64,000 nucleotides of DNA. Origin: Thermoleptolyngbya sichuanensis A183. GTDB lineage: Bacteria; Cyanobacteriota; Cyanobacteriia; Elainellales; Elainellaceae. The position numbers were made by a program, and so were the translations under genes. Below are positions 1,763-37,868 of this stretch, one piece after another; within the stretch, counting starts at the first letter, position 1, and each line of letters begins with the position of its first letter. Below the pieces are notes generated by a model. That model saw only the letters and a list, made by a program, of their open reading frames with translations, had not been told where the DNA came from and searched no databases. The stretch covers positions 1,674,001-1,738,000 of the forward strand of contig NZ_CP053661.1 of NCBI RefSeq assembly GCF_013177315.1, read 5' to 3'.

Positions 1763-3279
1763 CTTTAGTTTGGACTAACTGGCATCACAATAATGCTCAA
1801 CAGGATGCCATAAAGAATCTGCTCAACCGTTCATAACAGTTGAACTTAAGGAATTGGATACAATCCTGCTCGCAGTTAAGCTGCTGTTGCAACCGGACTG
1901 TTCAGGGATTGTTCGGATGTCTTGCGTTTCGAGGCTCGTTTTTTGACCATCGGATAGCAGGGACGAGGAGTTGGCTTGTGCCCCTTGCCTCGTCCTGGCG
2001 ATTTACCACGAGGTTTAGGCGCAGGAGCAGGGGTGCCAATCGCTGCCAAAATGCCTGCAAACGCTTGTGCGACCCGACCCGGAGTCAACGTTTCTTGCGG
2101 TGCCTGCCAGGGCAAGGGGTGGTCAGTACAGTCCTTTCGCGCTAACCACAACTGCCAACTGAGCAACGGCATCAGGCTGCTCCACTGTTCGGTTGCCGAT
2201 ACAGAACTGAACTGGGGATGTGTCCAATATAGCCTCTGCTTGGCAAAGCGATACCAGTGTTCAATGGCAAAGCGACGGAGGTAGTGCAACCACAGGGTTT
2301 CTAACGGAGGCATCTGCTCACCCAGCCAAACTAACCACAAAGGAGCCAAGCGTCGCGTGCTGCTCTGTGTCTCCAGCACCTCCACGCGCAACACTTCCAT
2401 TGCCCGTTTGGGGGATTTGCGGAAATGGTATGCACTCCAACGACTGACCCGCACTCGTCCCCAGTTGGGATCATCGACTTCAACGGTTTCGACCGGGACA
2501 CTCCAAGTGTCAGGGTCATTGAGTTTCATCTTATGTCCATGCTTGGCAGGTGCGCCTCGCCCTCGATACGCTGGGGGCGCGCCATAGACACATCGATTGG
2601 ATGTAACCCGCAGCAGCAAGTCTGCCTCAATCCCTGCCGTTTGGTTGACAAAACTGGCATTGCCGTACCCTCGGTCGTAGATCGCCAACGGACGCACCGC
2701 TAACTGCCGAGTCACTTGTTTGAGTTGGAATGCCGCTTTACTGGCGGGTGTTTCAAAGCTGGTGATGCGCTCATGCCGCAATGGTAATGCCCAACTGCCC
2801 CTGTCTTCAGCAATCCAGGCTAAGGTACTGTAGTTTTGTCCGGCTATCGGGGCATGTCCTGTTCTGCCTGATAAGGTGCGGTCTTTCAAACGCCTGGCAG
2901 CAGGACGGTTCCACCGACTCGCATCACCTGCCAACAACGGTTGCTGCTGAGTCGGTATCTGCTGCACCAACAGCTTCAGCACCTTTGATCGGGGTAGGCG
3001 GCTATCGCGCAACGCTTCATAGGTGCTCGACCACTGGCGACGAAAGACAGGACTCTGCGATAGCCTCACAAACGACACGATGCACGCACTCACTAACACG
3101 GCATCCATCAGATCAAACAGGGCATCTCTGGCGTTTCCCAAGCTGGCATACAACGTTTGGCGAAATTGCTGAAGTTCGTTGAAAATCATGGGGTCAATGT
3201 TGGTTGTACTTCATTGACCTTACGGCAGTCGGTGCTTCTCATTGACTGCCTTCCTCTTCACCATTAGTCCAAACTAAAG
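1763..3279 (-). mobile_element. 1,517-bp insertion sequence, copy 1
   Basis: Bounded by the inverted repeat CTTTAGTTTGGACTAA. It carries one transposase gene and is identical in the parts I compared to copy 3 (36352-37868). Copy 2 (8651-10167) differs at one synonymous site. The 6-bp flanks of this copy do not match each other (TATTTA at left, AGCGCG at right on the plus strand). Their reverse complements, TAAATA and CGCGCT, are exactly the flanks of copy 3. Confidence 0.93.
1876..3189 (-). CDS. DDE transposase of the 1,517-bp IS (copy 1)
   Basis: A 437-residue DDE transposase. Likely catalytic residues are Asp89 (LAGDASRW), Asp172 (AIYDRGYG) and Glu310 (FAIEHWYRFAKQRLYW). The C-terminal 55 residues are very basic and proline-rich (PAPKPRGKSPGRGKGHK), probably for DNA binding. 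I cannot assign the IS family with confidence; the spacing suggests the IS4/IS701 superfamily, but 6-bp target repeats are not typical of either. Three intact copies in 38 kb indicate a recently active element. Confidence 0.9.
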   Translation of the reverse strand: MIFNELQQFRQTLYASLGNARDALFDLMDAVLVSACIVSFVRLSQSPVFRRQWSSTYEALRDSRLPRSKVLKLLVQQIPTQQQPLLAGDASRWNRPAARRLKDRTLSGRTGHAPIAGQNYSTLAWIAEDRGSWALPLRHERITSFETPASKAAFQLKQVTRQLAVRPLAIYDRGYGNASFVNQTAGIEADLLLRVTSNRCVYGAPPAYRGRGAPAKHGHKMKLNDPDTWSVPVETVEVDDPNWGRVRVSRWSAYHFRKSPKRAMEVLRVEVLETQSSTRRLAPLWLVWLGEQMPPLETLWLHYLRRFAIEHWYRFAKQRLYWTHPQFSSVSATEQWSSLMPLLSWQLWLARKDCTDHPLPWQAPQETLTPGRVAQAFAGILAAIGTPAPAPKPRGKSPGRGKGHKPTPRPCYPMVKKRASKRKTSEQSLNSPVATAA

Positions 3280-3335
3280 AGCGCGAGAAATCGTCCAAAA
3301 TTCAGAAAACCCATCGCAAGTGCGTAGATCCTGGC
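3280..3335. repeat. Left half of a palindromic repeat, cut by the 1,517-bp IS
   Basis: CGCGAGAAATCGTCC followed by spacer and TGCGTAGATCCT matches, in reverse, the left half of the complete palindromic repeat at 5431-5520. The break is exactly at the IS end. The missing right half lies at 37869-37911 beside IS copy 3. Confidence 0.8.
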
Positions 3336-3495
3336 CCAATGACCTGTAAAAGACTTGAGGGAACCCACAAGCCTCCTCAAGTCTTGTGGCATTTATGGGT
3401 CTTCGATACATCTTCAATACTGGGTCATACAGGGTCAGGTGACCCGCTCTTGGCAATCCAAAATCGCCAATCCAAAATCCAAAACCAAATTGCCG

Positions 3496-4068
3496 CTACG
3501 CAATCAGGGCTTCTAGAAGGCTCGTGCCGACGTAGATATAAAAGCCAACAAGCACGGCCGCAGCAGGAACCAGCGCCAGGAAAAAGTGGAAGTAGTCGAT
3601 CTTGGTGAGGCCAATGGCGTAGCTCACGACATCCTGACCCAGCAGCATAATCAGTGCCATATAAAGGACGCTGTGATGCCCCTTTAGGCGAGCCACAAAC
3701 GCATCCAGTTCCTCAATCTCATCTTTGCCCACCAGTCGCACTGCAACCCGGCGACCGTAGCGACGGGAAATCCAATAATTTATGCTGCACCCGATCAGCG
3801 ACGCGATGAAGCTCAGCACAAAGGCAGTTTCTTTGCCAAACAGCGCCCCACCCGCAATAAAGATGGAACTGCCGCTAAGCGGGGCAGCAATCAAGCTCGC
3901 CGCACAGACAACCGTGAACAGGAGTGGGGCCCAAGGGCCGGCGCGTTCAACCCAGAGGTGGGCATTCTCTAGCCCGATGAGCTTGAAGGCAAACGCCATG
4001 ACGGCATAGGCGATCGCCAGCGAAAGCAGAGCCACCAGCAGCTTTTTCAGCCTGGGCGAAAGTTTCAT
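3496..4068 (-). CDS. TVP38/TMEM64 (VTT-domain) membrane protein
   Basis: A 190-residue multi-pass membrane protein of the TVP38/TMEM64/DedA-like superfamily. An N-terminal transmembrane segment (about residues 9-30) is followed by the conserved VTT core with the glycine-rich stretch AGGALFGKETAF and the region YWISRRYGRR. The C-terminal hydrophobic helix ends in YVGTSLLEALIA. VTT proteins are linked to phospholipid scrambling and membrane homeostasis; no specific substrate is established for cyanobacterial members. It is transcribed from the minus strand as a single gene, next to but not overlapping the EamA permease upstream. Confidence 0.85.
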   Translation of the reverse strand: MKLSPRLKKLLVALLSLAIAYAVMAFAFKLIGLENAHLWVERAGPWAPLLFTVVCAASLIAAPLSGSSIFIAGGALFGKETAFVLSFIASLIGCSINYWISRRYGRRVAVRLVGKDEIEELDAFVARLKGHHSVLYMALIMLLGQDVVSYAIGLTKIDYFHFFLALVPAAAVLVGFYIYVGTSLLEALIA

Positions 4069-4186
4069 GGATCGAACGGCTCCAGAGGCTTAGCATCTTG
4101 AACCTCTTCACCGTACTTAACAATTCCCGCCAGCGTCAACAGGCTTGAAGGAGAACCAGCACAGCAATAGCGCTGAGACCGCCCCA

Positions 4187-7375: not shown

Positions 7376-7513
7376 GAGCTAATTTATGAAGCAAATCTTA
7401 AGAAGCCTGAAACTCTTGGCATGTGTGGCTTTGAGGTCATGTTTGCCCAGGAAAAGCGGTTTCTCGGAAATCCTTGATTAACAAGGCTTTCAGGCTCCTT
7501 TACAAATTAGCTC
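7376..7513. mobile_element. MITE-A copy 2 (138 bp)
   Basis: Identical in sequence to the copies at 182 and 11014, with the target repeat TTA on both sides (7373-7375, 7514-7516). It lies 48 bp downstream of IS4 element A. Confidence 0.88.
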
Positions 7514-7769: not shown

Positions 7770-8650
7770 ATGAGTGGAGTCCTCAAAATCGATATCGCTG
7801 AAACAGCAGAAGAACTAAAAGCCGTCTTGGAACAACAGCAACGGTCATCACAGCGCCGTAAAGTACAGGTGTTGTGGTGGTTAAAAACCGGACAAGCGAA
7901 GAGCGTTGAGCAGTTAGCCCAACTGAGCGGTTGCCATCGCACGACCGTGTCTCGTTGGCTGAGCCAGTATCGACAGAGTGGACTCGAAGCGTTGGTGAAG
8001 GTGGCATCTCGCAGTGGACGACCGCGAGCGATTAGCGGTGAAGTCCTGGCATCTTTGGAGCGGGAACTGCAAGATCCAGAAGGCTTTAGCAGTTATGGAG
8101 CAGTGCAGCAGTGGCTCGCAGCGGTGCATGGTCAACCCGTCCCCTACAAGACGGTGCATAAGACGGTGCGCTATCGGCTCAAAGCGAAGCTCAAAGTGCC
8201 CCGTCCGGTGTCAAAGAAGCAGACTCCTGGGGCGTGCGAGTCCGTTCAGCAAACCTTGCAGCCCAGATAAGCCAGTCGATTCCGCCAGCCTTGAGACAAC
8301 GCTACGGGGGGCGAATCCGCTATTGGTGCAGCGATGAGAGCCGCGTCGGACTGCTGACGGTTCAACATCGCAAGTTGACGGGCTTTGGGGTGCAGCCGAT
8401 TGGTTCAGTTCAATGGGACTTTGTGTATCGGTGGCTGTACGGTCTAGTGGAACCGCTGAGCGGTGCATCGTGGATAGTCGAGTTTTCTCATCTCGACAGT
8501 TCCTGTTTTGAGGCGTTTTTGCACAGCTTTGCGGCTCAGTTCCCCGATGATTTACATCTGATTCAGGTGGATAATGCCGCAGCCCATACGGCTCAGACCC
8601 TGACGATACCGGACAATGTCATCTTGGTGTTTCAGCCGCCTTATTGCCCT
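7770..8650 (+). pseudogene. IS630-family transposase, frameshifted and truncated
   Basis: Starts MSGVLKIDIAETAEELKAVL with a helix-turn-helix (SVEQLAQLSGCHRTTVSRWL). The reading frame stops at 8270. The DDE domain continues in the -1 frame (RYGGRIRYWCSDESRVGL; LIQVDNAAAHTAQTL) from about 8234. The usual PPYSPELNPIE ending is cut after PPYCP, where the 1,517-bp IS copy 2 begins at 8651. The gene therefore lacks its last catalytic Glu. No slippery run is obvious at the frame change, so decay is more likely than programmed shifting. Confidence 0.8.
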
Positions 8651-10167
8651 CTTTAGTTTGGACTAATGGTGAAGAGGAAGGCAGTCAATGAGAAGCACCG
8701 ACTGCCGTAAGGTCAATGAAGTACAACCAACATTGACCCCATGATTTTCAACGAACTTCAGCAATTTCGCCAAACGTTGTATGCCAGCTTGGGAAACGCC
8801 AGAGATGCCCTGTTTGATCTGATGGATGCCGTGTTAGTGAGTGCGTGCATCGTGTCGTTTGTGAGGCTATCGCAGAGTCCTGTCTTTCGTCGCCAGTGGT
8901 CGAGCACCTATGAAGCGTTGCGCGATAGCCGCCTACCCCGATCAAAGGTGCTGAAGCTGTTGGTGCAGCAGATACCGACTCAGCAGCAACCGTTGTTGGC
9001 AGGTGATGCGAGTCGGTGGAACCGTCCTGCTGCCAGGCGTTTGAAAGACCGCACCTTATCGGGCAGAACAGGACATGCCCCGATAGCCGGACAAAACTAC
9101 AGTACCTTAGCCTGGATTGCTGAAGACAGGGGCAGTTGGGCATTACCATTGCGGCATGAGCGCATCACCAGCTTTGAAACACCCGCCAGTAAAGCGGCAT
9201 TCCAACTCAAACAAGTGACTCGGCAGTTAGCGGTGCGTCCGTTGGCGATCTACGACCGAGGGTACGGCAATGCCAGTTTTGTCAACCAAACGGCAGGGAT
9301 TGAGGCAGACTTGCTGCTGCGGGTTACATCCAATCGATGTGTCTATGGCGCGCCCCCAGCGTATCGAGGGCGAGGCGCACCTGCCAAGCATGGACATAAG
9401 ATGAAACTCAATGACCCTGACACTTGGAGTGTCCCGGTCGAAACCGTTGAAGTCGATGATCCCAACTGGGGACGAGTGCGGGTCAGTCGTTGGAGTGCAT
9501 ACCATTTCCGCAAATCCCCCAAACGGGCAATGGAAGTGTTGCGCGTGGAGGTGCTGGAGACACAGAGCAGCACGCGACGCTTGGCTCCTTTGTGGTTAGT
9601 TTGGCTGGGTGAGCAGATGCCTCCGTTAGAAACCCTGTGGTTGCACTACCTCCGTCGCTTTGCCATTGAACACTGGTATCGCTTTGCCAAGCAGAGGCTA
9701 TATTGGACACATCCCCAGTTCAGTTCTGTATCGGCAACCGAACAGTGGAGCAGCCTGATGCCGTTGCTCAGTTGGCAGTTGTGGTTAGCGCGAAAGGACT
9801 GTACTGACCACCCCTTGCCCTGGCAGGCACCGCAAGAAACGTTGACTCCGGGTCGGGTCGCACAAGCGTTTGCAGGCATTTTGGCAGCGATTGGCACCCC
9901 TGCTCCTGCGCCTAAACCTCGTGGTAAATCGCCAGGACGAGGCAAGGGGCACAAGCCAACTCCTCGTCCCTGCTATCCGATGGTCAAAAAACGAGCCTCG
10001 AAACGCAAGACATCCGAACAATCCCTGAACAGTCCGGTTGCAACAGCAGCTTAACTGCGAGCAGGATTGTATCCAATTCCTTAAGTTCAACTGTTATGAA
10101 CGGTTGAGCAGATTCTTTATGGCATCCTGTTGAGCATTATTGTGATGCCAGTTAGTCCAAACTAAAG
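8651..10167 (+). mobile_element. 1,517-bp insertion sequence, copy 2
   Basis: Same ends and length as copies 1 and 3. The codon for serine after LKDRTL reads TCG here instead of TCA. The flanking hexamers TGCCCT (left, in IS630) and TTAAGT (right, in ISKra4) do not match. The two neighbours are also different truncated elements. This copy is therefore a recombination or deletion product, not a simple insertion. Confidence 0.93.
8741..10054 (+). CDS. DDE transposase of the 1,517-bp IS (copy 2)
   Basis: Protein identical to those of copies 1 and 3 (437 residues; Asp89, Asp172 and Glu310 as the probable catalytic triad). One synonymous difference separates its gene from the other two. The ATG lies 90 bp inside the left end of the element. 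Confidence 0.9.
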   Translation: MIFNELQQFRQTLYASLGNARDALFDLMDAVLVSACIVSFVRLSQSPVFRRQWSSTYEALRDSRLPRSKVLKLLVQQIPTQQQPLLAGDASRWNRPAARRLKDRTLSGRTGHAPIAGQNYSTLAWIAEDRGSWALPLRHERITSFETPASKAAFQLKQVTRQLAVRPLAIYDRGYGNASFVNQTAGIEADLLLRVTSNRCVYGAPPAYRGRGAPAKHGHKMKLNDPDTWSVPVETVEVDDPNWGRVRVSRWSAYHFRKSPKRAMEVLRVEVLETQSSTRRLAPLWLVWLGEQMPPLETLWLHYLRRFAIEHWYRFAKQRLYWTHPQFSSVSATEQWSSLMPLLSWQLWLARKDCTDHPLPWQAPQETLTPGRVAQAFAGILAAIGTPAPAPKPRGKSPGRGKGHKPTPRPCYPMVKKRASKRKTSEQSLNSPVATAA

Positions 10168-10944
10168 TTAAGTGCCAACGAATCGTTTCAAGATGCAGAG
10201 GATGACATCGTAGCCCTGACCGGGATGCGGGTCGGGCACTCGACCCAACAACGTCTGGTGGGGCGTCAGTCGTTCGAGTCTGCCGAGGCTAAACAAGGCG
10301 TCAGTGAGGTCAGCATTGATGGCGGCAAAGTCCGTCTGCGTGACCTGCTAGAGTCCGATAGCCCGTGGCGAGACTACAAAGCGGTGCGGGTGGAGGGGAT
10401 TGATTACAACGCCTTCTTCCAAGACAATGACAGCTTGATTGATTATCTCAGCGCTCAACGCTTGCTCTCCCCACTGGTCTGTCTGGGCGATGGTCACGCT
10501 GGGGTGTGGAATCTGTTTGCTCAACTCACCACCGTTGAGACCCGTTGGGAAATCCTCGATTGGTACCATCTCAAAGAAAACCTCTACAAAGTCGGTGGGT
10601 CGCTCAAGCGCTTAGCAGCGGCGGAAATGCTGTTATGGCAAGGTCAAGTGGAAGCCGCCAGGGCCCTCTTTGCCGACTGTCGGCGCAAGCAAGCCCGCAA
10701 TTTTGAAGCCTATCTGAGCACCCATCGCTCTCGCATCGTGAATTATGGGTTCTACCAGGCTGAGCAACTCTGTTCTATTGGATCAGGAGCCGTAGAATCG
10801 GCTGTCAAACAGATTGGGCGACGCCTCCAAATTTCGGGTGCTCGCTGGAATACGGCCTCCGTTAATGCCATGTTGAGTCTGCGCTGTGCCTACCTCAATG
10901 GACAGCTCGCCAGTTGACTGTTTCATCGAAAGTGGGATGCTCCT
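10168..10944 (+). pseudogene. ISKra4-family element, 3' fragment
   Basis: From LSANESFQDAEDDIVALTGM onwards the protein matches residue for residue the C-terminal part of the ISKra4 transposase at 51672-52711. It includes SIDGGKVRLR, CLGDGHAGVWN and ILDWYHLKENL and stops at 10917. The right terminal repeat (complement of AGGAGCATCCCACTTTCG) ends at 10944. The 5' third was lost at the junction with IS copy 2. Confidence 0.88.
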
Positions 10945-11013: not shown

Positions 11014-11151
11014 GAGCTAATTTATGAAGCAAATCTTAAGAAGCCTGAAACTCTTGGCATGTGTGGCTTTGAGGTCATGTTTGCCCAGGAAAAGCGGTTT
11101 CTCGGAAATCCTTGATTAACAAGGCTTTCAGGCTCCTTTACAAATTAGCTC
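11014..11151. mobile_element. MITE-A copy 3 (138 bp)
   Basis: Identical to the copies at 182 and 7376, with TTA target repeats at 11011-11013 and 11152-11154. Confidence 0.88.
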
Positions 11152-11166
11152 TTAGAGCCAGTCCTA

Positions 11167-25606: not shown

Positions 25607-25615
25607 ATTGCAGCC

Positions 25616-26497: not shown

Positions 26498-26763
26498 GGT
26501 CGGTTGATTTTGGATTTGCGGTTTTGGATAGCTCATCCAGCATTCATCGGGCTTTCAGCCATTTCATTCGCAGCGTTACTTCGGAGAGATATAGGGCTGG
26601 TAGCGCTGGAGTGCGGTTCAAGTTGGCAAGCTTGAAGCATGGAATAGCTGAGGTATGGCTGAGGTGTAGCTAAAAATCGCTGCGATGCGGCTCGAAACCC
26701 GTCCTAGAATCAGGATGATGTAATTGCGCGATTCCTGTAGGGATCGCCTCGCGAATTGCCCCT

Positions 26764-27123: not shown

Positions 27124-27151
27124 GAGAGGCTAGGAGCGGAGTGACGGCGTA

Positions 27152-28009: not shown

Positions 28010-28100
28010 TCGGGCATCTGGATAATCGAGCATCTGGATAATCGGGCAAACCAGGTGGGAATACTGCTGTTCATGAGGGTGTATCAAACAGCGAAAATTT

Positions 28101-30494
28101 ATGAATGCAGCGGGCGGCGCAATGCTGTGCCTGGCCTACGGGCTGGGCCTGCTTTTGACCGGGGTTTCGGTGCAGGTATGGGGCATCTCAGCGGGGGCGA
28201 TCGCCCTCCCTGGGTTGGGATTGCTGGCAGGGGCGATCGCGCCTCGCCTCTGGCGGACGGGGCCTTCCGCCACGGTCTGGATAATAGCAGGATGGGTCGG
28301 ACTGTTGGCAGCGCTTTACTTTCAGGTGCGCCTGCCCAGACCTGCGGAAACTGACATTAGCGCTCTGCTGAGCAACCCCGACGCAGCAGCCGAGCAGACT
28401 AACTTAGCCGTAACGGTGCATGGCTTCATCGACACGCCGCCAAAGCAAACCCGCAGCGGCAAGCTCCAGCTAGAGCTAGTGCCGTTTCAGGTGCAGCAGA
28501 TGGACGAGGCCAACCAACCCATTCGCGCTGCGGCGGTGTCTGGGCGGCTGTATGTAACGCTGCCGCTGAAGCTGAAGACCGGCCTGCATCCGGGGCAAAT
28601 GCTCACGGTGTCGGGGTCGCTGTATCGCCCCAAGCCCGCCAGCAACCCCGGCGGCTTCGATTTCCGGCAATACTTGGCACAGCGCGGTATGTTTGCAGGA
28701 CTGGCGGGTAAAACCGTTGATTTTCCGGCAACAGAGGGGCGGTTTCGGGAACAGTGGATGTGGAGGCGATCGCTCTCTTCCCGGCTTCAGCAAGCGCTGT
28801 GGCAGGTGCGGCAGCGCATCGTGCGATCGCAGGCAGCGGGTCTAACCGTGAAAGCTGCCCCCAAAAAACCTAAAGAACCTAAAGAACCTGACGAGCGACC
28901 GGCGGCCCTGGTCAGCGCTATGCTGTTGGGCAAGGGGGCCGTAGACGTACCCTTTGACCTGCGCGACAGCTTTGCCAATGCGGGATTGGCCCACGCGCTG
29001 GCGGCATCGGGCTTTCAGGTATCGCTGCTGATCGGTATTTTGCTCAGCCTGACGCGATCGCTCCCGTCCCAGATCAGCTTTGCGCTCTCGGCGGCGGCGC
29101 TGCTGGGCTATATCGGCCTAACGGGGCTGGAGCCGTCGGTGGCGCGGGCGGGCGTGATGGGTCTGGCGGTGCTGGTGGCGATCACGCTGGGGCGCAAGGT
29201 CAACCCGCTCCACTCGCTGCTGCTGGCGGCGACGCTGCTGCTGCTGGTGAATCCGATCTGGATTTGGGATTTGGGCTTTCAGCTCAGCGTGCTGGCGACG
29301 CTGGGGCTGCTGGTGACGGCTCCCGTGCTGACGAAATGGCTGGACTGGCTGCCCAGCGCGATCGCCCCGCTGGTGGCCGTGCCTCTCGCCGCCTTCGTGT
29401 GGACGCTTCCGCTGCAACTGCACGTCTTCGGCGTGGTGTCGCCCTACAGCCTGCCGCTCAATATCCTGACTGCGCCGGTGATTACGGGCATCAGCCTGGG
29501 CAGCGGCCTCAGTGCGCTGGCGGCGCTGGTTGTGCCTGCGGTGGGCAGCGCGATCGCCCAGTTGCTCCTGTGGCCAACCCAGTTGTTGATCGCGCTGGTG
29601 GAATTTGCCAACCAGCTTCCGGGCAATGCCTATGCAGCGGGGGCGATCGCGCCCAGTCAGGTGGTCGCGCTGTATGCCATCTACCTGCTGGTGTGGGGCG
29701 TGGCGGCGCTACATCGGCGCTGGTGGGTGGCGGCGATCGTGTGTCTTGGGCTGGTGGCCATTCCGACGGGGACGGCGGTGATGTCGCGGCTGGCGGTGAC
29801 CGTGCTAGACACGGCCGACGAGCCGATGCTGATCGTGCAGCACCGCAGCCGCGTGGGGCTAATCGGCAGCTTCAGCCCCCAGGACGTGCAGTTCACCGTG
29901 CTGCCCTTTTTGCGACAGCAGGGGGTGAACCGGGTGACCTGGGCGATCGCCCCCGACCTCACCGAATGCCACACAGAAGGCTGGATGCAGCTTGCACAAC
30001 ATCTACCGATTCAGTCTTTCTATTTTTCTTCTGGAGCATGTGAACCCTCTGAAACCCCAAAGCCCCCCGACAAACAGCAACTCATTCAGCAACTCCAGGC
30101 GGGGGGCGGCCGGATTTACACATTGCCGCTGGATCAGGCGGTGCAGCTTGGCGATGTGGCGGTGCGGCAGGTGAATCAAGACCCCTTAGCGCTGCGATTT
30201 CAGATTGGTGACCAAATCTGGCTGCTGCTGCGCGAGTCGAAAACCGTGCCTTTGGAACTTGTGCTGCCACGACTGGCGACCCTGACCAGCGTGCTGTGGT
30301 GGGACGGAATAAAGCTGGATGCCCAAGCGCTCAGCACGATTCGCCCCCAGCAGGCGATCGCCACTCGCCCGCCCAGCGAAGCCGCAGAAGCCTGGTTCCG
30401 CAGCCAAACCGTTCCCCTGCATGTGGTCGCTCAGCAGGGCGCAATTCAGTGGACTCCAAAAACAGGGTTTCGGGCGATCGCCCCCGTCGATTAG
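28101..30494 (+). CDS. comEC: ComEC/Rec2-family DNA-uptake channel
   Basis: A 797-residue polytopic membrane protein. The N-terminal soluble DUF4131-like beta domain (about 75-215) contains GQMLTVSGSLYRPKPASNPG. The competence core follows with LVSAMLLGKGAVDVPFDLRD, GLAHALAASGFQVSLLIGIL and many helices. The C-terminal region has the position of the metallo-beta-lactamase domain but lacks the HxHxDH zinc motif, as is common in cyanobacterial ComEC. It forms the inner-membrane channel for transforming DNA. It is followed by tRNA-Ser. Confidence 0.9.
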   Translation: MNAAGGAMLCLAYGLGLLLTGVSVQVWGISAGAIALPGLGLLAGAIAPRLWRTGPSATVWIIAGWVGLLAALYFQVRLPRPAETDISALLSNPDAAAEQTNLAVTVHGFIDTPPKQTRSGKLQLELVPFQVQQMDEANQPIRAAAVSGRLYVTLPLKLKTGLHPGQMLTVSGSLYRPKPASNPGGFDFRQYLAQRGMFAGLAGKTVDFPATEGRFREQWMWRRSLSSRLQQALWQVRQRIVRSQAAGLTVKAAPKKPKEPKEPDERPAALVSAMLLGKGAVDVPFDLRDSFANAGLAHALAASGFQVSLLIGILLSLTRSLPSQISFALSAAALLGYIGLTGLEPSVARAGVMGLAVLVAITLGRKVNPLHSLLLAATLLLLVNPIWIWDLGFQLSVLATLGLLVTAPVLTKWLDWLPSAIAPLVAVPLAAFVWTLPLQLHVFGVVSPYSLPLNILTAPVITGISLGSGLSALAALVVPAVGSAIAQLLLWPTQLLIALVEFANQLPGNAYAAGAIAPSQVVALYAIYLLVWGVAALHRRWWVAAIVCLGLVAIPTGTAVMSRLAVTVLDTADEPMLIVQHRSRVGLIGSFSPQDVQFTVLPFLRQQGVNRVTWAIAPDLTECHTEGWMQLAQHLPIQSFYFSSGACEPSETPKPPDKQQLIQQLQAGGGRIYTLPLDQAVQLGDVAVRQVNQDPLALRFQIGDQIWLLLRESKTVPLELVLPRLATLTSVLWWDGIKLDAQALSTIRPQQAIATRPPSEAAEAWFRSQTVPLHVVAQQGAIQWTPKTGFRAIAPVD

Positions 30495-30530
30495 CGCCGT
30501 TCGTCCTGTAAAATACGATAATGCCCCTTT

Positions 30531-30617
30531 GGAGAGGTGGCAGAGTGGTTGAATGCGCTTGACTCGAAATCAAGTTTGGGGTCACACCCAACGGGGGTTC
30601 GAATCCCCCCCTCTCCG
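30531..30617 (+). tRNA. tRNA-Ser(CGA)
   Basis: Acceptor stem GGAGAGG/CCTCTCC with discriminator G at 30617. The anticodon stem CTTGA/TCAAG encloses the loop CTCGAAA, giving anticodon CGA. A long variable arm (TTTGGGGTCACACCCAACG) and T-loop GGTTCGAATCC are present. The 87-nt length is typical of class II tRNA-Ser. No CCA is encoded. Confidence 0.95.
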
Positions 30618-30753
30618 TATTGCTTTAGGTTGCCCGGTCGATTCAGATTGTCAGGTCAAGATGTAGCGCTGGCTACACAATGTCGCTTTTGCGTCAGAAC
30701 TGGGGATAATTGGGAAAGTTCTCGTCTCCATCCCAGAACCCAATCCCAGACCT

Positions 30754-31869
30754 ATGACTCAGCCCAATCGGCCAATCGCTCCGTTTAGCCGCAAAACCCG
30801 TCGGCAGTTTCTTCAGGGGGCAGGCGCGGCCCTGTCAGCCGTGGCGCTGGCGAGCTGTCGGGGCGGCTATAGCAACGTGCAGGGCGGCGCGGGCGGCAGT
30901 GATACGCTGCGGATTTATACCTGGTCAAACTATATTGACGACGAGCTACTGAGCCAGTTTCAGGAGCAGACAGGCGTGCGGGCGATCGCCGATGTGTTCG
31001 ACTCCAACGAAACCATGCTGGCGAAGGTGCAGGCCGGCGGCGGCAACGAGTACAGCATCATCTACCCCTCCGACTATATGGTGGAGCAGATGAGGGAACT
31101 GAACCTGCTGGCAGAACTGGACAAAAGCAAAATCACCGGAGCCGAAAACCTGCTGCCCCAGTTCCAAGACCCGCCCTACGACCCCGGCAATCAGTTCAGC
31201 ATTCCCGCCGTGTGGGGTACGACCGGCCTAGTTTACAACCGCACCCAGCTAAACCCCTCGCCGCAGGACTGGGACTATCTCTGGGATAATCAGAGCAAGC
31301 TAGCGCGACGGGTGACGCTGTTTAACGACGTGCGCGAGGTGATGGGCGCAACGCTGAAGTCGCTGGGCTATTCCTATAACTCCACCAACCCAAAGGAACT
31401 GGAGGCGGCGTTCCGGCAGTTGCAAAAGCTCAAGCCTGCGATCGCCAACTTTACCACCGACGGCTGGCGCGATCAGATGTTGACGGGCGACTTGGCGATC
31501 GCCATGGCCTATTCCTCCGACGCGCTCCAGGTGTCCGAAGAAAATCCCGACATCCAATACCTGATTCCTGCCAGCGGCTCGTCCCTGTGGACCGATACGA
31601 TGGTAATTCCGGCGGCTGCCCCCAACCCCGATGCGGCCTATGCCTGGATTAACTTCTTGCTGGAGCCAGATGTGCTGGCACAGGCATCGGAGCGGCTGAG
31701 GTTCGCCACGGCAAACCAGGCGGCGATCGACCTCCTGCCCAACGCCCTCAAGTCCAATCCCAACCTCTATCCCAACCAGGCAGCGCTGCAAAAATGTGAG
31801 CGCATTTCCCCGATCGGCGACGCGACGGAACTCTACGACCAGTATTGGACGCAGCTCACCAGCCTATAG
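30754..31869 (+). CDS. potD: Spermidine/putrescine-type ABC transporter substrate-binding protein
   Basis: A 371-residue periplasmic binding protein of the PotD/PotF class. The N-terminus combines a twin-arginine motif (RKTRRQFLQGAGAAL) with a lipobox-like ALASC (31-35), so it is probably a Tat-exported lipoprotein. The body starts TLRIYTWSNYIDDELLSQFQ and has the family segments YSIIYPSDYMVEQM, VWGTTGLVYN and WTDTMVIPAAA. ATPase and permease genes are not adjacent. Polyamine specificity is inferred from the family only. Confidence 0.85.
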   Translation: MTQPNRPIAPFSRKTRRQFLQGAGAALSAVALASCRGGYSNVQGGAGGSDTLRIYTWSNYIDDELLSQFQEQTGVRAIADVFDSNETMLAKVQAGGGNEYSIIYPSDYMVEQMRELNLLAELDKSKITGAENLLPQFQDPPYDPGNQFSIPAVWGTTGLVYNRTQLNPSPQDWDYLWDNQSKLARRVTLFNDVREVMGATLKSLGYSYNSTNPKELEAAFRQLQKLKPAIANFTTDGWRDQMLTGDLAIAMAYSSDALQVSEENPDIQYLIPASGSSLWTDTMVIPAAAPNPDAAYAWINFLLEPDVLAQASERLRFATANQAAIDLLPNALKSNPNLYPNQAALQKCERISPIGDATELYDQYWTQLTSL

Positions 31870-31966
31870 CCGCCAGAAATCCGTTACCGGGTGGGCGATC
31901 GCGCATTACACTGGACTAGACCTTTTTGCCCCCCGGCATCGACCTCCAGCGGGCGACCCGTCAACC

Positions 31967-32998
31967 ATGTTTGAACTGCTCACCCGAATTCTGCTCTGGC
32001 TGCTAATTGGCACGATCCTCTGGTACGTGTTCAGCAAGTTTATTCCCAGGGTCTATCTGACGTGGCTAGGCGGCATTATCCTGTTTGCCTTCGTCATTCT
32101 GGCGTTCATTGACCCTACCAATCGCACCGTGGGCACGGTCTGGAGCGTGCTGTCGCTGCCGCTAAAACCGCTGGGTCTGGTGTTCTTCCTGCTGCTAAGT
32201 TCGCTGAAAAAAGGGGCCAAAAGCGTGGATGGCAATTTGGTGCTGGCGGCGGTGCTGGTGCTGCTGCTGACGAGTACGCCGATTGTGGCCTACTGGCTGA
32301 CCTCGCAGGCGGCCCGCACGCTGGCCTATAGCCCAGCGGTGCAGCGGCCGGTGGACTTTAACCCGGCATCCGTCAAGGCAATCGTGGTGCTAGGCGACAG
32401 CAATGACCCGGCCGACCCGGCCTACCGCAGCCGCACCCAGGTCAGCAGCGATCGCGACGGGTTTACCAACGTGCTGGCCTCGCGGCTCTTCTTTGCGGCT
32501 CGCGTCTATCGGGGTGAGTTGGAACAGGGCCGAAACCCGCTGGTCATCGTCAGCCTGGGGTCGCAACTGGGGCTGAATGCGTCGCAAGAGGCGCGGGCGA
32601 TCGCCATTCAGACGGTGCAGGGAATTTTGACCAGCGCGGGCGTGCAGGGCGATCGCATCGTAATCGACACCGAAGGCACGGATCTCTACAGCAACGCGGT
32701 GGCTATCGAGCGCATCCTGACCCCCCTGGGCTACCAAAAAGAAACCGACAGCCTGCTGCTGGTGGTGCCCTTGCTCAACGTCAGCCGCGCCCGCGCCACC
32801 TTTGCCAGTCGCGGTCTGCGAACCCTGGGACTGCCCACCGACCAATTCCTGTTTCAACTGGACGATCGCCGTCTGATTGCCAGCGTCGCCGACCTGGTGC
32901 CCAATGTAGACGCGCTGGCGCTAACGACCCGCGTGGTAGACGAATATTTGTCTTCGGTTTACTACTTTATGCGCGGCTGGCTGGTCAGCCCTATTTAG
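31967..32998 (+). CDS. YdcF/ElyC-type (DUF218) membrane protein
   Basis: A 343-residue protein with several N-terminal transmembrane helices (residues about 3-22, 28-46 and 88-108) and a C-terminal DUF218 domain beginning KAIVVLGDSNDPADPAYRS. E. coli relatives (ElyC, SanA, YdcF) act in envelope biogenesis; the reaction is not known. I set the start at the ATG at 31967 (MFELLTRILLWLL); the longer frame upstream overlaps potD and lacks family similarity. Confidence 0.75.
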   Translation: MFELLTRILLWLLIGTILWYVFSKFIPRVYLTWLGGIILFAFVILAFIDPTNRTVGTVWSVLSLPLKPLGLVFFLLLSSLKKGAKSVDGNLVLAAVLVLLLTSTPIVAYWLTSQAARTLAYSPAVQRPVDFNPASVKAIVVLGDSNDPADPAYRSRTQVSSDRDGFTNVLASRLFFAARVYRGELEQGRNPLVIVSLGSQLGLNASQEARAIAIQTVQGILTSAGVQGDRIVIDTEGTDLYSNAVAIERILTPLGYQKETDSLLLVVPLLNVSRARATFASRGLRTLGLPTDQFLFQLDDRRLIASVADLVPNVDALALTTRVVDEYLSSVYYFMRGWLVSPI

Positions 32999-33098
32999 CA
33001 ACGCTTCACGAATCTTCTCCTAGCGGGGACTGCGACCCGGCAAGAATCTGGCGAAAATCTAGAGTACACTCAGTCCATCTTGCAGGGGCGATCGGACG

Positions 33099-36000
33099 AT
33101 GAGCCAGGGCCACCACCGGAGACCAGCGTGTTTCACTGCCAAACCAGGGCAGCGGTTTGCGGCAGAAAGACGAGGTTTCTCCGCCACGCTTGCACGAGGT
33201 TTCTCCGCCACGCTTGCGCGATATTGCTCCAGAACACTTGGACGATATTGCTCCAGAACACTTGGACGATATTGCTCCAGAACACTTGGACGATATTACT
33301 CCGTAACGCCTAGGCGATGTTGCTCCGCAACGCTTGCGCGAACGCCCCACTCCAGTTCCCACCGCGTCTCCCACAGTCGCAAAACCAGGCAGTGGATCAC
33401 AACGCTGCTTCTGGGGCTAGTGCTGGCACTAGGCCTAGCGCATTCCGCAACAGCCACGCTTCCCGCCGCATCCTCCCCGTCGCCAGAAATCCACGCTGCT
33501 CCCGCCACCTCCCCACCAGAGACCTTACGCACCCAGCGCTGGTCTGAATTTCCCGCACAGCCCCCCTCCACATTCCCCCTCCGTTCTTCGTTCTTCGCTC
33601 TTCCTTCTTCGTTCTTCGCTCTTCGTTCTTCCCCCGACCCCCCACACTCCGCCCGGTCGCTCTACGACGCGGGTCGCTATCGAGAGGCGATCGCCCAATT
33701 GGAAGCCCTCCTCGATCAACTGCGGCAACCGGGCGCAGACCCCAGCCTTGGGGAGCAAACTCGTCTCCAAATTGGGCTAACGCTGGCAAACCTGTCGCTG
33801 GCGCATCAGCAGCTTGGAGAATGGGCCACGGCAGAGCGGCACATTGCCGAAGCGGTGCAACTGCTGAATTCCCTCGCGGTGCGTACTGTGACAGTGCAGC
33901 AGGCACAGGCGCAGGCATTGACCATTTTGGGGCGGCTCCAATTTGCGCGGGGACAGGCAGATGCAGCGCTAGAGTCCTGGGAGCGAGCAACGGCGCTGTT
34001 TCAGCAGGTGGGCGACCTAGCCGCCATCGACACGCAGATGAACCAGGCGCAGGCGCTGCAATCCCTAGGGCTATATCGGCGGGCGATCGCCCAACTCGCC
34101 GCTATCAACCAGCAGCTTGCTGCCACACCCGACTCGCTGACCAAGGCGCAGGTGTTGCGGACGCTTGGGGATGCTCAGCGCGTGGCGGGCGATCTGGACG
34201 CGGCCCGTCAAGCCCTAGAGCAAAGCCGCCGGATTGCCGCCGCGCTGCACACCCAGTCGCCCACGCCCGCCACCCAGGAGGCGATCGCCGCCGTCACCCT
34301 TAGCCTGGCAAATCTGGGCCGGGCCAGGGCGATCGCCACGCTGGGCCAGGCAGGCATGACCCCCACCGAAGCAGTTCAGCGACTGAAGACCCCCCTATCC
34401 GACAATCGCGCTCGGCGGGCCTACGAACAGCGCCAGCAACGCATCGCCACCACCTTTTTGCAGCAGACGGAAATCGTGCTGAAGCTGTATGACGAGGCTG
34501 CCCAGGTGTCCCCCTCGGCAGAGTTGCGGCTTCAGGCGGCGCTAAATCATCTCAGCCTGCTGGTGGAAACGGCCCAGTGGGAGCAGGCGCGATCGCGCTA
34601 TCCAGCCCTTCAGCAGCAGCTCGACCTACTGCCCCCCAGCCGTCCGACGCTGTTTAACCAGATCGAACTGGCGCAGGGGTTGACCGCGATTTCCCAGGCC
34701 AGTGGCGGCGATCCTGGGCTAGAGGCGATCGCCCGTCGGCTGTCCAAAACAGTGCAGCAGGCGAGGGAACTGGACGACCTGCGGGCAGAGTCCTTGGCTC
34801 TGGGCAGCTTGGGGCATCTGTACGAACAAACGGGACAGTGGCGCGAAGCCCAAACCCTGACTCAGCAGGCGCTCAACCTGGCCCAGCAAATCGCCGCCGC
34901 CGACATCGCCTATCGATGGCAGTGGCAACTGGGGCGACTGCTGCTGGTGCAGGGCGACAAAACGGGGGCGATCGCCGCCTACAGCCAGTCCGTGCAAAGC
35001 CTGCAAGCCATTCGGGGCGATCTGGTGGCCATTAACCGAGACGTGCAGTTCTCCTTCCGCGAGAGCGTGGAGCCAGTCTATCGCCAGTTGGTCGATTTGC
35101 TGCTCGATCCGCAAAACCCAACCCCCGACCTGGAGCGGCTGGTGCAGGCGCGGGACGTGATCGAGGGGCTGCAAGTGGCAGAACTGGACAACTTCTTTCG
35201 GGAAGCCTGCCTGGATACGCAGTTTCAGCTAGACCGGGTAGTGGATTTGTCTACGCTGCCCGCCGCCGTGCTGTATACCATTGTCCTGCCCGACCGGATT
35301 GAAGTCATCCTGAAGCAGCCCCAGCAGCCCCTCCGCCGTTACACCACGCCCGTCGCCCAGGAAACCGTGGAGCGGGTGTCCGAAGACCTGCTGCGAGAAT
35401 TGCGCGATCGCGCTTACCCCTCCCCAGAAGGACTGGCGCTGTCTCAGCAGGTCTACGACTGGCTGATTCGCCCCATTGCAGACCAGTTGACCGAAAACCA
35501 GACGCTTGTTTTCGTGCTAGACGGGGCGCTCCGCAACGTGCCAATGGCAGCCCTGCACGACGGTCGCCAGTATTTGATCGAACACTACAGCGTGGCGCTG
35601 GCTCCTGGTCTGCAACTGCCCGACCCGCGCCCGCTCCAGCAGCGTCAGTTTCGCGCCCTGATAGCCGGGCTGACGGAAGCACGAGACAATTTTCCTGCCC
35701 TGCCCAACGTGGAAAAGGAGCTAGAGGAAATCCAAAAAACCCTGCCCAGCCGCGTGCTAATCAACACAAGCTTTACCCAGCAAAATTTCCAGAATTCTCT
35801 AAGCGCCGCACCCGCCTCAATTGTCCACGTTGCAACCCACGGCGAGTTTAGCTCCAATGCTGCCGACACCTTCATCCTGGCGTGGGATAGCCGGGTCAAT
35901 GTGAAAGACCTCAGCAGCCTGCTGCAAGTCCAAGAGCTAGACAGCCCGGAACCGATTGAACTGCTGGTGTTGAGCGCCTGCCGCACCGCCGAGGGCGATC

Positions 36001-36245
36001 GCCGCGCCACGCTGGGTCTCGCAGGCGTGGCAGTCCGCGCCGGGGCCCGCAGCACCATCGCCTCGCTCTGGAGCGTAGACGACGAAGCCGGAGCCGACCT
36101 GATGATCGAGTTCTATCACCAACTGACGCGCAGCCCCATCTCCAAAGCCGAAGCTCTGCGCCAGGCCCAGCTGAGCCTACTGCGGGCAAACTACGACGCG
36201 CCCCGCTTCTGGGCATCCTACGTGCTGCTGGGCAACTGGCTTTAG
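33099..36245 (+). CDS. TPR-CHAT protein with signal/anchor and repeat-rich N-terminus
   Basis: A 1,048-residue protein. Residues 26-81 are an eight-residue repeat (RYCSRTLG and variants) encoded by a 24-bp tandem array. A hydrophobic signal or anchor (99-119, WITTLLLGLVLALGLAHSATA), a short-repeat-derived stretch (162-177), then a long region of TPR helices (about 185-690) follow. The C-terminal CHAT caspase-like protease has His914 (VHVATHGEFS) and Cys961 (LLVLSACRTAEGD). CHAT-TPR proteins are common in cyanobacteria; some act in defence or programmed death, but no gasdermin or STAND partner is next door. No in-frame start exists between the repeats and the anchor, so they appear to be translated. 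The stop codon overlaps MITE-B. Confidence 0.85.
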   Translation: MSQGHHRRPACFTAKPGQRFAAERRGFSATLARGFSATLARYCSRTLGRYCSRTLGRYCSRTLGRYYSVTPRRCCSATLARTPHSSSHRVSHSRKTRQWITTLLLGLVLALGLAHSATATLPAASSPSPEIHAAPATSPPETLRTQRWSEFPAQPPSTFPLRSSFFALPSSFFALRSSPDPPHSARSLYDAGRYREAIAQLEALLDQLRQPGADPSLGEQTRLQIGLTLANLSLAHQQLGEWATAERHIAEAVQLLNSLAVRTVTVQQAQAQALTILGRLQFARGQADAALESWERATALFQQVGDLAAIDTQMNQAQALQSLGLYRRAIAQLAAINQQLAATPDSLTKAQVLRTLGDAQRVAGDLDAARQALEQSRRIAAALHTQSPTPATQEAIAAVTLSLANLGRARAIATLGQAGMTPTEAVQRLKTPLSDNRARRAYEQRQQRIATTFLQQTEIVLKLYDEAAQVSPSAELRLQAALNHLSLLVETAQWEQARSRYPALQQQLDLLPPSRPTLFNQIELAQGLTAISQASGGDPGLEAIARRLSKTVQQARELDDLRAESLALGSLGHLYEQTGQWREAQTLTQQALNLAQQIAAADIAYRWQWQLGRLLLVQGDKTGAIAAYSQSVQSLQAIRGDLVAINRDVQFSFRESVEPVYRQLVDLLLDPQNPTPDLERLVQARDVIEGLQVAELDNFFREACLDTQFQLDRVVDLSTLPAAVLYTIVLPDRIEVILKQPQQPLRRYTTPVAQETVERVSEDLLRELRDRAYPSPEGLALSQQVYDWLIRPIADQLTENQTLVFVLDGALRNVPMAALHDGRQYLIEHYSVALAPGLQLPDPRPLQQRQFRALIAGLTEARDNFPALPNVEKELEEIQKTLPSRVLINTSFTQQNFQNSLSAAPASIVHVATHGEFSSNAADTFILAWDSRVNVKDLSSLLQVQELDSPEPIELLVLSACRTAEGDRRATLGLAGVAVRAGARSTIASLWSVDDEAGADLMIEFYHQLTRSPISKAEALRQAQLSLLRANYDAPRFWASYVLLGNWL
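33172..33339. repeat. Seven 24-bp tandem repeats within the CHAT gene
   Basis: Units begin at 33172, 33196, 33220, 33244, 33268, 33292 and 33316. Two have the form GAGGTTTCTCCGCCACGCTT..., three are GATATTGCTCCAGAACACTT... and the last two are intermediate. As 24 is a multiple of three the frame is kept (eight residues per unit). There are no spacers. Confidence 0.9.
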
Positions 36246-36323
36246 AGGATGTTTGAAAAGTCCTACTCTTTGTAGCAAAGCGTGCAAGATCCCCCTAAAT
36301 CCCCCTTAAAAAGGGGGACTTTA
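36245..36323. mobile_element. MITE-B remnant, interrupted by an IS5 terminus
   Basis: GAGGATGTTTGAAAAG through AAAAAGGGGGACTTTA matches the reverse complement of MITE-B (7551-7713) for 79 bp. It then stops where an IS5-type end (GAGCTAATTT) begins after TTA. The other half is not in the window. Confidence 0.8.
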
Positions 36324-36351
36324 GAGCTAATTTATAAAGAAAATCTAAATA
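36324..36351. mobile_element. Displaced terminus of the IS5-family element
   Basis: GAGCTAATTTATAAAGAAAA followed by TCTAAATA up to the start of IS copy 3. Joined through TAAATA to the sequence upstream of the IS5 transposase (complement of 1757-1762 and below), it provides the missing inverted repeat. It differs by one base from the end at 864. Confidence 0.75.
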
Positions 36352-37868
36352 CTTTAGTTTGGACTAATGGTGAAGAGGAAGGCAGTCAATGAGAAGCACC
36401 GACTGCCGTAAGGTCAATGAAGTACAACCAACATTGACCCCATGATTTTCAACGAACTTCAGCAATTTCGCCAAACGTTGTATGCCAGCTTGGGAAACGC
36501 CAGAGATGCCCTGTTTGATCTGATGGATGCCGTGTTAGTGAGTGCGTGCATCGTGTCGTTTGTGAGGCTATCGCAGAGTCCTGTCTTTCGTCGCCAGTGG
36601 TCGAGCACCTATGAAGCGTTGCGCGATAGCCGCCTACCCCGATCAAAGGTGCTGAAGCTGTTGGTGCAGCAGATACCGACTCAGCAGCAACCGTTGTTGG
36701 CAGGTGATGCGAGTCGGTGGAACCGTCCTGCTGCCAGGCGTTTGAAAGACCGCACCTTATCAGGCAGAACAGGACATGCCCCGATAGCCGGACAAAACTA
36801 CAGTACCTTAGCCTGGATTGCTGAAGACAGGGGCAGTTGGGCATTACCATTGCGGCATGAGCGCATCACCAGCTTTGAAACACCCGCCAGTAAAGCGGCA
36901 TTCCAACTCAAACAAGTGACTCGGCAGTTAGCGGTGCGTCCGTTGGCGATCTACGACCGAGGGTACGGCAATGCCAGTTTTGTCAACCAAACGGCAGGGA
37001 TTGAGGCAGACTTGCTGCTGCGGGTTACATCCAATCGATGTGTCTATGGCGCGCCCCCAGCGTATCGAGGGCGAGGCGCACCTGCCAAGCATGGACATAA
37101 GATGAAACTCAATGACCCTGACACTTGGAGTGTCCCGGTCGAAACCGTTGAAGTCGATGATCCCAACTGGGGACGAGTGCGGGTCAGTCGTTGGAGTGCA
37201 TACCATTTCCGCAAATCCCCCAAACGGGCAATGGAAGTGTTGCGCGTGGAGGTGCTGGAGACACAGAGCAGCACGCGACGCTTGGCTCCTTTGTGGTTAG
37301 TTTGGCTGGGTGAGCAGATGCCTCCGTTAGAAACCCTGTGGTTGCACTACCTCCGTCGCTTTGCCATTGAACACTGGTATCGCTTTGCCAAGCAGAGGCT
37401 ATATTGGACACATCCCCAGTTCAGTTCTGTATCGGCAACCGAACAGTGGAGCAGCCTGATGCCGTTGCTCAGTTGGCAGTTGTGGTTAGCGCGAAAGGAC
37501 TGTACTGACCACCCCTTGCCCTGGCAGGCACCGCAAGAAACGTTGACTCCGGGTCGGGTCGCACAAGCGTTTGCAGGCATTTTGGCAGCGATTGGCACCC
37601 CTGCTCCTGCGCCTAAACCTCGTGGTAAATCGCCAGGACGAGGCAAGGGGCACAAGCCAACTCCTCGTCCCTGCTATCCGATGGTCAAAAAACGAGCCTC
37701 GAAACGCAAGACATCCGAACAATCCCTGAACAGTCCGGTTGCAACAGCAGCTTAACTGCGAGCAGGATTGTATCCAATTCCTTAAGTTCAACTGTTATGA
37801 ACGGTTGAGCAGATTCTTTATGGCATCCTGTTGAGCATTATTGTGATGCCAGTTAGTCCAAACTAAAG
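36352..37868 (+). mobile_element. 1,517-bp insertion sequence, copy 3
   Basis: Ends CTTTAGTTTGGACTAA in inverted orientation to copy 1 at 1763. Flanking hexamers are TAAATA (left) and CGCGCT (right). They do not match each other but match the far flanks of copy 1. Confidence 0.93.
36442..37755 (+). CDS. DDE transposase of the 1,517-bp IS (copy 3)
   Basis: 437 residues, protein identical to copies 1 and 2. At the single variable site (serine codon after LKDRTL) it shares TCA with copy 1 and differs from copy 2. Confidence 0.9.
   Translation: MIFNELQQFRQTLYASLGNARDALFDLMDAVLVSACIVSFVRLSQSPVFRRQWSSTYEALRDSRLPRSKVLKLLVQQIPTQQQPLLAGDASRWNRPAARRLKDRTLSGRTGHAPIAGQNYSTLAWIAEDRGSWALPLRHERITSFETPASKAAFQLKQVTRQLAVRPLAIYDRGYGNASFVNQTAGIEADLLLRVTSNRCVYGAPPAYRGRGAPAKHGHKMKLNDPDTWSVPVETVEVDDPNWGRVRVSRWSAYHFRKSPKRAMEVLRVEVLETQSSTRRLAPLWLVWLGEQMPPLETLWLHYLRRFAIEHWYRFAKQRLYWTHPQFSSVSATEQWSSLMPLLSWQLWLARKDCTDHPLPWQAPQETLTPGRVAQAFAGILAAIGTPAPAPKPRGKSPGRGKGHKPTPRPCYPMVKKRASKRKTSEQSLNSPVATAA

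What the first reader, a model, noticed from the sequence alone, without database searches (positions are those of the whole stretch)
1763..37868. Swapped target repeats show a 33-kb inversion between two IS copies
Copies 1 and 3 of the 1,517-bp IS are inverted relative to each other. Read in transposase orientation, copy 1 is flanked by CGCGCT and TAAATA, and copy 3 by TAAATA and CGCGCT. Neither copy has matching flanks, but the pair matches crosswise. Re-joining through CGCGCT rebuilds a palindromic repeat with a perfect 15-bp stem (3280 side plus 37869 side). Re-joining through TAAATA gives the IS5-family element back its missing terminus (36324 side plus 1762 side). This is what homologous recombination between inverted copies leaves behind, so 3280-36351, with uvrA, cysS, menCE, lexA, comEC and the CHAT gene, is flipped relative to the ancestral order. 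It also gives this IS a 6-bp target duplication.
Basis: seen in the sequence. Interest (0 to 1): 0.82.

Follow-up and report, generated by a model that had tools for sequence, protein, structure and literature searches.

The report
33-kb inversion between two IS copies

Summary
Copies 1 (1763-3279, -) and 3 (36352-37868, +) of a 1,517-bp IS are identical, inverted and carry crosswise target repeats (CGCGCT, TAAATA). (1) Across CGCGCT the flanks rebuild a 39-nt palindrome of a family with 27 intact members; across TAAATA they rebuild a 921-bp IS5-type element identical over its full length to another copy. (2) Genome-wide, 53 of 80 full copies have a direct target repeat (6 bp in 35, 7 bp in 16), so the swap is a real signature. 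(3) In the one congener available, the NAD-kinase and VTT genes, now 34 kb apart, are convergent neighbours (64 bp between alignments), as predicted. It is one case among many: 27 of 80 copies lack matching repeats, and a second reciprocal pair is borne out by the congener at one junction, not at the other. Caveats: the CHAT-side junction is not seen in the congener; recombination cannot be told from replicative intramolecular transposition because both copies are identical; no reads were available to exclude misassembly. Exchanged target duplications at TE-made inversions are well known: a new member of a known kind.

The parts
1763..3279 (-). IS copy 1 (1,517 bp, 437-aa transposase 1876-3189, NF041680 family); the flipped segment begins at 3280
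36352..37868 (+). IS copy 3, identical to copy 1 and inverted; right boundary of the flipped segment
3280..36351 (.). 33,072-bp flipped segment with uvrA, cysS, menC, menE-like, lexA, ComEC-domain, potD-like and CHAT genes
   Evidence: older adjacency in G001
1757..1762 (-). TAAATA, 3' flank of copy 1
3280..3285 (-). CGCGCT, 5' flank of copy 1
36346..36351 (+). TAAATA, 5' flank of copy 3
37869..37874 (+). CGCGCT, 3' flank of copy 3
3280..3296 (-). left half of the 39-nt palindrome (17 nt, to the end of CGCGCT)
   Evidence: family of 27 intact copies
37869..37896 (+). right half of the 39-nt palindrome (28 nt including the repeated CGCGCT)
864..1762 (-). main part of the split IS5-type element (ORF 1260-1697, part of an IS5 family transposase)
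36324..36351 (+). missing 28-nt end of an IS5-type element, including one TAAATA
3496..4068 (-). VTT-domain gene, inside the segment; next to NAD kinase in the congener
38477..39400 (-). NAD(+) kinase gene, outside the segment; next to the VTT gene in the congener
33099..36245 (+). TPR-CHAT gene, last gene of the segment at the copy 3 side
319..816 (-). JAB-domain gene left of copy 1; next to the gene at -2213 to -1041 here and in five of six relatives' JAB regions read
8651..10167 (+). IS copy 2, one base different, no matching target repeat; lies inside the segment and is not part of this swap

Best explanation
Two copies of one recently amplified 1,517-bp IS had inserted in opposite orientation, one into a 39-nt palindromic repeat between the VTT and NAD-kinase genes (6-bp repeat CGCGCT), the other into an IS5-type element beside the CHAT gene (6-bp repeat TAAATA). 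A single crossover between the two identical copies flipped the 33,072 bp between them, so each copy now has one repeat of each pair and each disrupted element is split across both breakpoints. Shown: the identical inverted copies, the crosswise repeats, the exact rebuilding of both targets, the 6-7 bp repeats at other copies, and the VTT/NAD-kinase adjacency in a congener. Inferred: that the congener's order at this join is the older one, that the exchange was homologous recombination rather than transposase action, and that the assembly is right at this place.
For: Crosswise repeats and identical copies. Target repeat length independently set by 53 of 80 copies. The rebuilt palindrome has the exact length of 27 intact ones, and both halves share the CT of CGCGCT, which none of the 27 intact places shows at that position in either direction (54 of 54 rows read otherwise, nearly all GG). 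Only these two of 80 copies have a palindrome half within 40 nt, so the palindrome is not a hot spot. Rebuilt IS5-type element identical over its full length to L093. G001: 9501-10755 of L132 matches window 39729-38472 and 10820-11456 matches window 3497-4142, the predicted convergent order. A second reciprocal pair found by the same rule, 1832508/4210148, is borne out on one side: G001 contig C249 joins pieces of genome 1824134-1832250 to pieces of 4211822-4215361 with 121 bp between.
Against: The CHAT/JAB adjacency was not found: G001 gave no JAB match, its CHAT gene is followed by menC, and none of six JAB regions and three further CHAT regions of other relatives shows the pair. VTT beside NAD kinase rests on one genome; the other 19 NAD-kinase regions gave no VTT match, one of them (L134) ending 463 bp past the gene. 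The rebuilt IS5-type element has unequal 3-bp flanks (TTA left, TAA right), while 9 of 9 distinct related MITEs and 2 of 3 other distinct full IS5-type copies have equal ones, so that site was probably rearranged before. The second join of pair 1832508/4210148 was not borne out: past the right flank of 1832508, G001 contig C383 next matches genome 2496187-2497317. G001 is not colinear at a control copy with an intact repeat either. Both copies are identical, so no chimera can show the crossover.
Confidence: 0.78

Rival explanations
1. Replicative intramolecular transposition of a single resident copy into the second site (the trans route known for IS6-type elements) made the inversion and the second copy in one step.
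For: By my own derivation it leaves the same crosswise repeats; the IS6 review states that intramolecular replicative transposition gives deletion or inversion (passages). Nothing in the window excludes it.
Against: 53 of 80 copies are simple insertions with a direct repeat. The nearest families by profile (NF041680; IS701 and IS4 hits far below cut-off) are not ones I know to be replicative (recalled). The second reciprocal pair is in direct orientation, which one inversion of either kind cannot give.
Confidence: 0.12
2. Assembly error: the true chromosome is unflipped and the assembler took the wrong exit from two identical 1.5-kb repeats.
For: A misjoin through identical repeats gives exactly swapped repeats, also in direct orientation as in pair 1832508/4210148. 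The published assembly is a MaSuRCA hybrid corrected with short reads (passages of PMC8461337).
Against: PacBio reads averaged about 9 kb at 94-fold coverage, about six times the IS length. Pure misjoining should let every flank find its partner, but only 11 of 27 left flanks of copies without a repeat have a partner of 6 bp or more among the right flanks of such copies and of unpaired ends (one right end, 4578441, was not in that pool). Copies without a repeat differ from the window copy more often than copies with one (11 of 27 against 7 of 53, Fisher p = 0.0096), which fits ageing better than misassembly.
Confidence: 0.09
3. Coincidence: two unrelated insertions whose repeats were lost and whose flanks happen to match crosswise.
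For: One-way 6-mer matches do occur by chance (4 of 2756 control pairs); at least one of two competing TATTCC matches to 4580942 must be chance.
Against: Reciprocal match expected 0.001, both targets rebuilt exactly, and the congener shows the predicted neighbours at one side.
Confidence: 0.01

Closest known systems
TE-mediated inversion with exchanged target site duplications, e.g. Drosophila inversion 2z3 between Galileo copies (PMC2775673, abstract and passages)
   Same: Two inverted copies at the breakpoints, exchanged repeats, single copies of the target in the non-inverted state
   Different: Bacterial IS; the copies are identical, so the chimeric-copy proof used there is not available here
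IS-mediated rearrangements in IS-rich bacteria such as Shigella and in cyanobacteria (search listings only; inversions between IS copies recalled)
   Same: Many near-identical IS copies acting as portable homology
   Different: Here single swaps can be read from 6-7 bp repeats and split multi-copy elements and partly checked in a congener
NF041680 family putative transposase (NCBIfam)
   Same: The copy 1 transposase scores 507 bits against a cut-off of 440
   Different: The model's line gives no target length; repeats of 6-7 bp were measured here
IS701 family
   Same: Weak profile similarity (45 bits, cut-off 170); 1,517 bp lies in the 1400-1550 range given for IS701 (PMC2266710, passages)
   Different: IS701 is reported to make 4-bp repeats; this IS makes 6-7 bp

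Membership tests
Inversion by recombination between inverted IS copies | Two homologous copies in opposite orientation at the breakpoints | tested here: met
   1517 nt, 100% complementary
Inversion by recombination between inverted IS copies | Exchanged target duplications | tested here: met
Inversion by recombination between inverted IS copies | Uninverted order in a relative, first breakpoint (VTT beside NAD kinase) | tested here: met
   one congener; the other 19 NAD-kinase regions gave no VTT match (one cut 463 bp past the gene) and no CHAT match either
Inversion by recombination between inverted IS copies | Uninverted order in a relative, second breakpoint (CHAT beside JAB) | tested here: inconclusive
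   no JAB match in G001 (85% complete), CHAT next to menC there
Inversion by recombination between inverted IS copies | Chimeric copies showing the crossover | not testable with these tools
   both copies identical
NF041680 transposase family | Score above the curated cut-off over nearly the full model | tested here: met
   507.4 bits, cut-off 440, model 1-438 of 439
IS701 family | 4-bp target duplication | tested here: not met
   6 bp in 35, 7 bp in 16 of 53; 4 bp for IS701 from PMC2266710
IS701 family | Curated IS701 profile score | tested here: not met
   45.3 and 30.3 bits against cut-offs 170 and 150

The most novel reading that the evidence does not exclude
This IS is actively scrambling the chromosome, with several arrangements coexisting in the culture. 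The direct-orientation reciprocal pair 1832508/4210148 (one join seen in the congener) would then record either chained overlapping inversions or a passing split of the chromosome into circles of about 2.4 and 3.1 Mb that rejoined at the IS.
Probability: 0.12. Interest if true: 0.6.

Novelty: new member of a known kind. Interest (0 to 1): 0.34.

Why it matters
The window pair shows that swapped target repeats, read from raw sequence alone, predicted a gene adjacency that a congener has. With 80 full copies of one nearly identical IS, the same rule could recover part of the recent rearrangement history of a chromosome from one genome, and it warns that gene order in this strain is a snapshot.

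Tried and rejected
Considered that copy 2 (8651-10167) takes part in the swap because the repeat finder extended the copy 1/copy 2 match to 8630-10171; its flanks (downstream of an IS630-like ORF, and an ISKra4-like fragment; both below their cut-offs) do not match crosswise with copy 1 or 3, and it differs by one base. Rejected.

Considered an IS hot spot in the palindrome as an explanation for both halves; only the two window copies of 80 have a palindrome half within 40 nt. Rejected.

Tried to test a third possible event (2320371/2274332, one-way match TTTTTA) in the congener: the stretch around that IS has no counterpart in G001. Inconclusive. The far join of pair 1832508/4210148 was not borne out: G001 contig C383 matches the right flank of 1832508 up to 5917, and the next match along it (9341-10456) is to genome 2496187-2497317, not to the left flank of 4210148 (compared only with the own stretches fetched).

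Controls that did not come out clean: at 4797956, a copy with an intact 7-bp repeat, G001 has the two flanks on different contigs (C560 and C73), and C560 runs on for 3.9 kb without a match to the fetched own stretches; at 4787150, the other intact copy in the same query, the nearest matches are about 1.1 kb to the left and 2.1 kb to the right on unrelated contigs, so it says nothing. Non-colinearity in G001 by itself therefore means little; only the specific predicted joins count.

The shuffling null was uninformative (its partner set held no 6-bp match at all); I use the control-pair counts and the base-frequency estimate of that call. GC skew does not mark the flip: -0.046 and -0.013 inside, +0.029 to the right, -0.004 to the left. 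A first script had the orientation of minus-strand loci wrong; one search replaces it. Absence of the IS from G001 is not firm: no match, but only 6 of 18 first-look candidates were scored. In one search only 40 of 103 candidates were scored, which is why end patterns were used (88 left and 86 right ends; one search worked with 88 left and 85 right). The count of 80 full copies takes left and right ends 1,512-1,546 bp apart, so longer, nested or end-mutated copies are left out as unpaired ends (8 left, 5 right).
Full report
Where it is. The window is bases 1,674,001-1,738,000 of a single-contig genome of 5,525,100 bp. That size equals the published chromosome of Thermoleptolyngbya sichuanensis PKUAC-SCTA183, CP053661, a hot-spring cyanobacterium (PMC8461337, passages only). 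The identification rests on the equal size and on cyanobacterial relatives, not on a named record.

The observation. Copies at 1763-3279 (-) and 36352-37868 (+) are 1,517 bp, 100% complementary and 33,072 bp apart. Their ends are CTTTAGTTTGGACTAA and its complement. In transposase orientation the flanks are CGCGCT/TAAATA at copy 1 and TAAATA/CGCGCT at copy 3.

Is the swap a signature? Copies in the own genome were located by exact end patterns: 88 left ends and 86 right ends. Stretches holding the 88 left ends were fetched (and the window). Of 80 full copies, 53 have a direct repeat: 35 with 6 bp, 16 with 7, one with 5, one with 8; 27 have none. Lengths 6 and 7 are thus both normal for this IS. 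Among ordered pairs of the 27 repeat-less copies, 8 of 702 match at 6 bp and 2 of 702 at 7 bp. Control pairs between copies with intact repeats match at 4 of 2756 and 0 of 2756; mixed pairs at 0 and 1 of 1431 (6 bp) and 1 and 0 of 1431 (7 bp). Some of the one-way matches must be chance: 3135711 and 3181105 both match 4580942. Reciprocal matches expected from the base frequencies of the 6-bp repeats are 0.001; two are seen, the window pair and 1832508/4210148.

The rebuilt targets. With one CGCGCT the outer flanks of the two copies give a 39-nt sequence with a perfect 15-bp stem. Twenty-seven intact places with the same arms exist elsewhere, all 39 nt long, 19 of 27 with centre GGCGCAGCC or its complement. 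The window's centre is CTGGCAGCC: its CT is not found at that position in any of the 27, read in either direction, and it is present in both copies of the 6-bp repeat, which ties the two halves to one site. With one TAAATA the inner flank 36324-36351 and the outer flank from 1762 downwards give a 921-bp IS5-type element identical to that in L093 over its full length (upstream sequences).

The relatives. Among 60 relatives listed there is one congener, G001 (630 contigs, 85% complete). Its NAD-kinase contig, 19,428 bp, has the length and the VTT match of RFIF01000562.1, MAG Cyanobacteria bacterium J069. On that contig, matches to window 49159-38472 run in order up to the end of NAD kinase; after 64 bp follows window 3497-4142, the VTT gene, in convergent orientation. 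This is the adjacency that flipping 3280-36351 back would give. The other 19 NAD-kinase regions read gave no VTT match within the stretch fetched, one of them (L134) ending 463 bp past the gene. The support at this breakpoint is therefore from one genome.

The other breakpoint is less clean. G001 gave no JAB match. Its CHAT gene lies next to DUF218 as in the window, but on the far side menC (window 25459) follows after 18 bp, so another rearrangement separates the two strains there. The rebuilt IS5-type element has TTA on its left and TAA on its right, while the 138-bp MITEs with the same ends have equal triplets in 9 of 9 distinct cases, and full IS5-type copies outside the window in 2 of 3 distinct cases. 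I infer that the CHAT end had been joined to this place by an older exchange, before the IS landed in the IS5-type element and before the 33-kb flip.

The second pair. Copies at 1832508 (-) and 4210148 (-) have GTCTAGT/AACCTA and AACCTA/GTCTAGT. Their orientation is direct. The rule predicts that the left side of the first once met the right side of the second, and that the right side of the first met the left side of the second. G001 contig C249 shows the first join: matches to 1824134-1832250, then, 121 bp on, matches to 4211822-4215361. The second join was not borne out: contig C383 matches the right side of the first copy and then 2496187-2497317. A direct pair cannot come from one inversion; it needs chained inversions, or splitting and rejoining of the circle, or an assembly error.

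Controls. A copy with an intact repeat (4797956) is not colinear in G001 either, and a second one (4787150) could not be judged. G001 is a scrambled and fragmented comparator, so I count only joins that were predicted beforehand: one of one testable for the window pair, one of two for the second pair.

Scale. Sixty-two of 80 copies are identical to copy 1; 17 differ by 1-5 bases and one by length. Copies without a repeat are more often changed (11 of 27 against 7 of 53; Fisher p = 0.0096). In a search of 60 genomes, own included, with mostly 6 candidates scored in each, the IS was found at 86-87% identity in G048, G008 and G041 and at lower identity or in pieces in others; 16 of 60 had some match, and G001 had none. 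The burst is therefore likely recent in this lineage. The strain paper reports 186 ISs with ISKra4, IS630 and IS4 as the most frequent, and speaks of 'inconsistent genome structures' against strain O-77; the words IS701, synteny and collinear do not occur in its main text. Three papers of the library hold the accession; I saw passages of one and only the listing of the other two, so I claim only that this inversion is not described in the passages I saw.

Mechanism. Exchanged repeats at a TE-made inversion are the expected mark of recombination between inverted copies; the Galileo paper states this, says that exchange alone does not rule out another route, and uses chimeric copies as further proof (PMC2775673, abstract and passages). 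Replicative intramolecular transposition also gives inversions (PMC7986276, passages). The copies here are identical, so the sequence cannot choose. I favour homologous recombination because most copies are simple insertions with direct repeats (53 of 80) and because 80 nearly identical copies of 1.5 kb are ample substrate.

What the IS is. The 437-aa transposase meets the NF041680 model (507 bits, cut-off 440) and matches Pfam DDE_5; IS701 and IS4 models score far below their cut-offs. IS701 makes 4-bp repeats (PMC2266710, passages), so I do not file it there.

Verdict. Real and correctly read; supported at one breakpoint by a congener and at both by rebuilt elements; mechanistically ordinary.

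Noticed in passing
own genome 1634801-1638718 and 2156108-2160027 (L047, L049): Two pairs of head-to-head IS copies each enclose 886 bp between their left ends (1636316-1637201 and 2157625-2158510); their IS copies differ from the window copy (2, 3 and 5 differences, one 1515 bp long), suggesting an older composite unit present twice.
   Followed up: no
own genome 208514-210030, 759823-761339 and right end 1454215: Three IS right ends are followed by a second 16-bp copy of the terminal repeat (TTAGTCCAAACTAAAG); at 208514 the 6-bp target repeat TGATAA lies outside the doubled end, so the doubled form may transpose.
   Followed up: partly
own genome 2166139-2169180, 3808153-3811193, 1560756-1562844: IS copies inserted in other copies of the same IS; two (1561328 and 3808725) lie at the same internal site near base 945.
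   Followed up: no
27 places in own genome, e.g. 403816-403854: A 39-nt near-perfect palindrome family, mostly GGACGATTTCTCGCGGGC-GCA-GCCCGCGAGAAATCGTCC; function unknown.
   Followed up: partly
about 182-319, 7376-7513 and 11014-11151 in the window, and six further distinct copies in fetched loci: 138-bp MITE with the ends of the IS5-type element; 9 of 9 distinct copies have equal 3-bp flanks. Flanks of IS copies 759823, 1642468 and 5398622 resemble its inside (by eye).
   Followed up: partly
window 24102-36251 against G001 contig C303 (L172): CHAT is followed directly by menC in the congener, while in the window menC faces lexA and CHAT faces the IS: a further rearrangement of about 11 kb between the strains.
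   Followed up: partly
genome-wide, 80 full IS copies: The strain paper's IS census (186 ISs; the most frequent family, ISKra4, 30.11%, about 56) seems hard to fit with 80 full copies of this one IS; it may have been under-counted or split among families.
   Followed up: no
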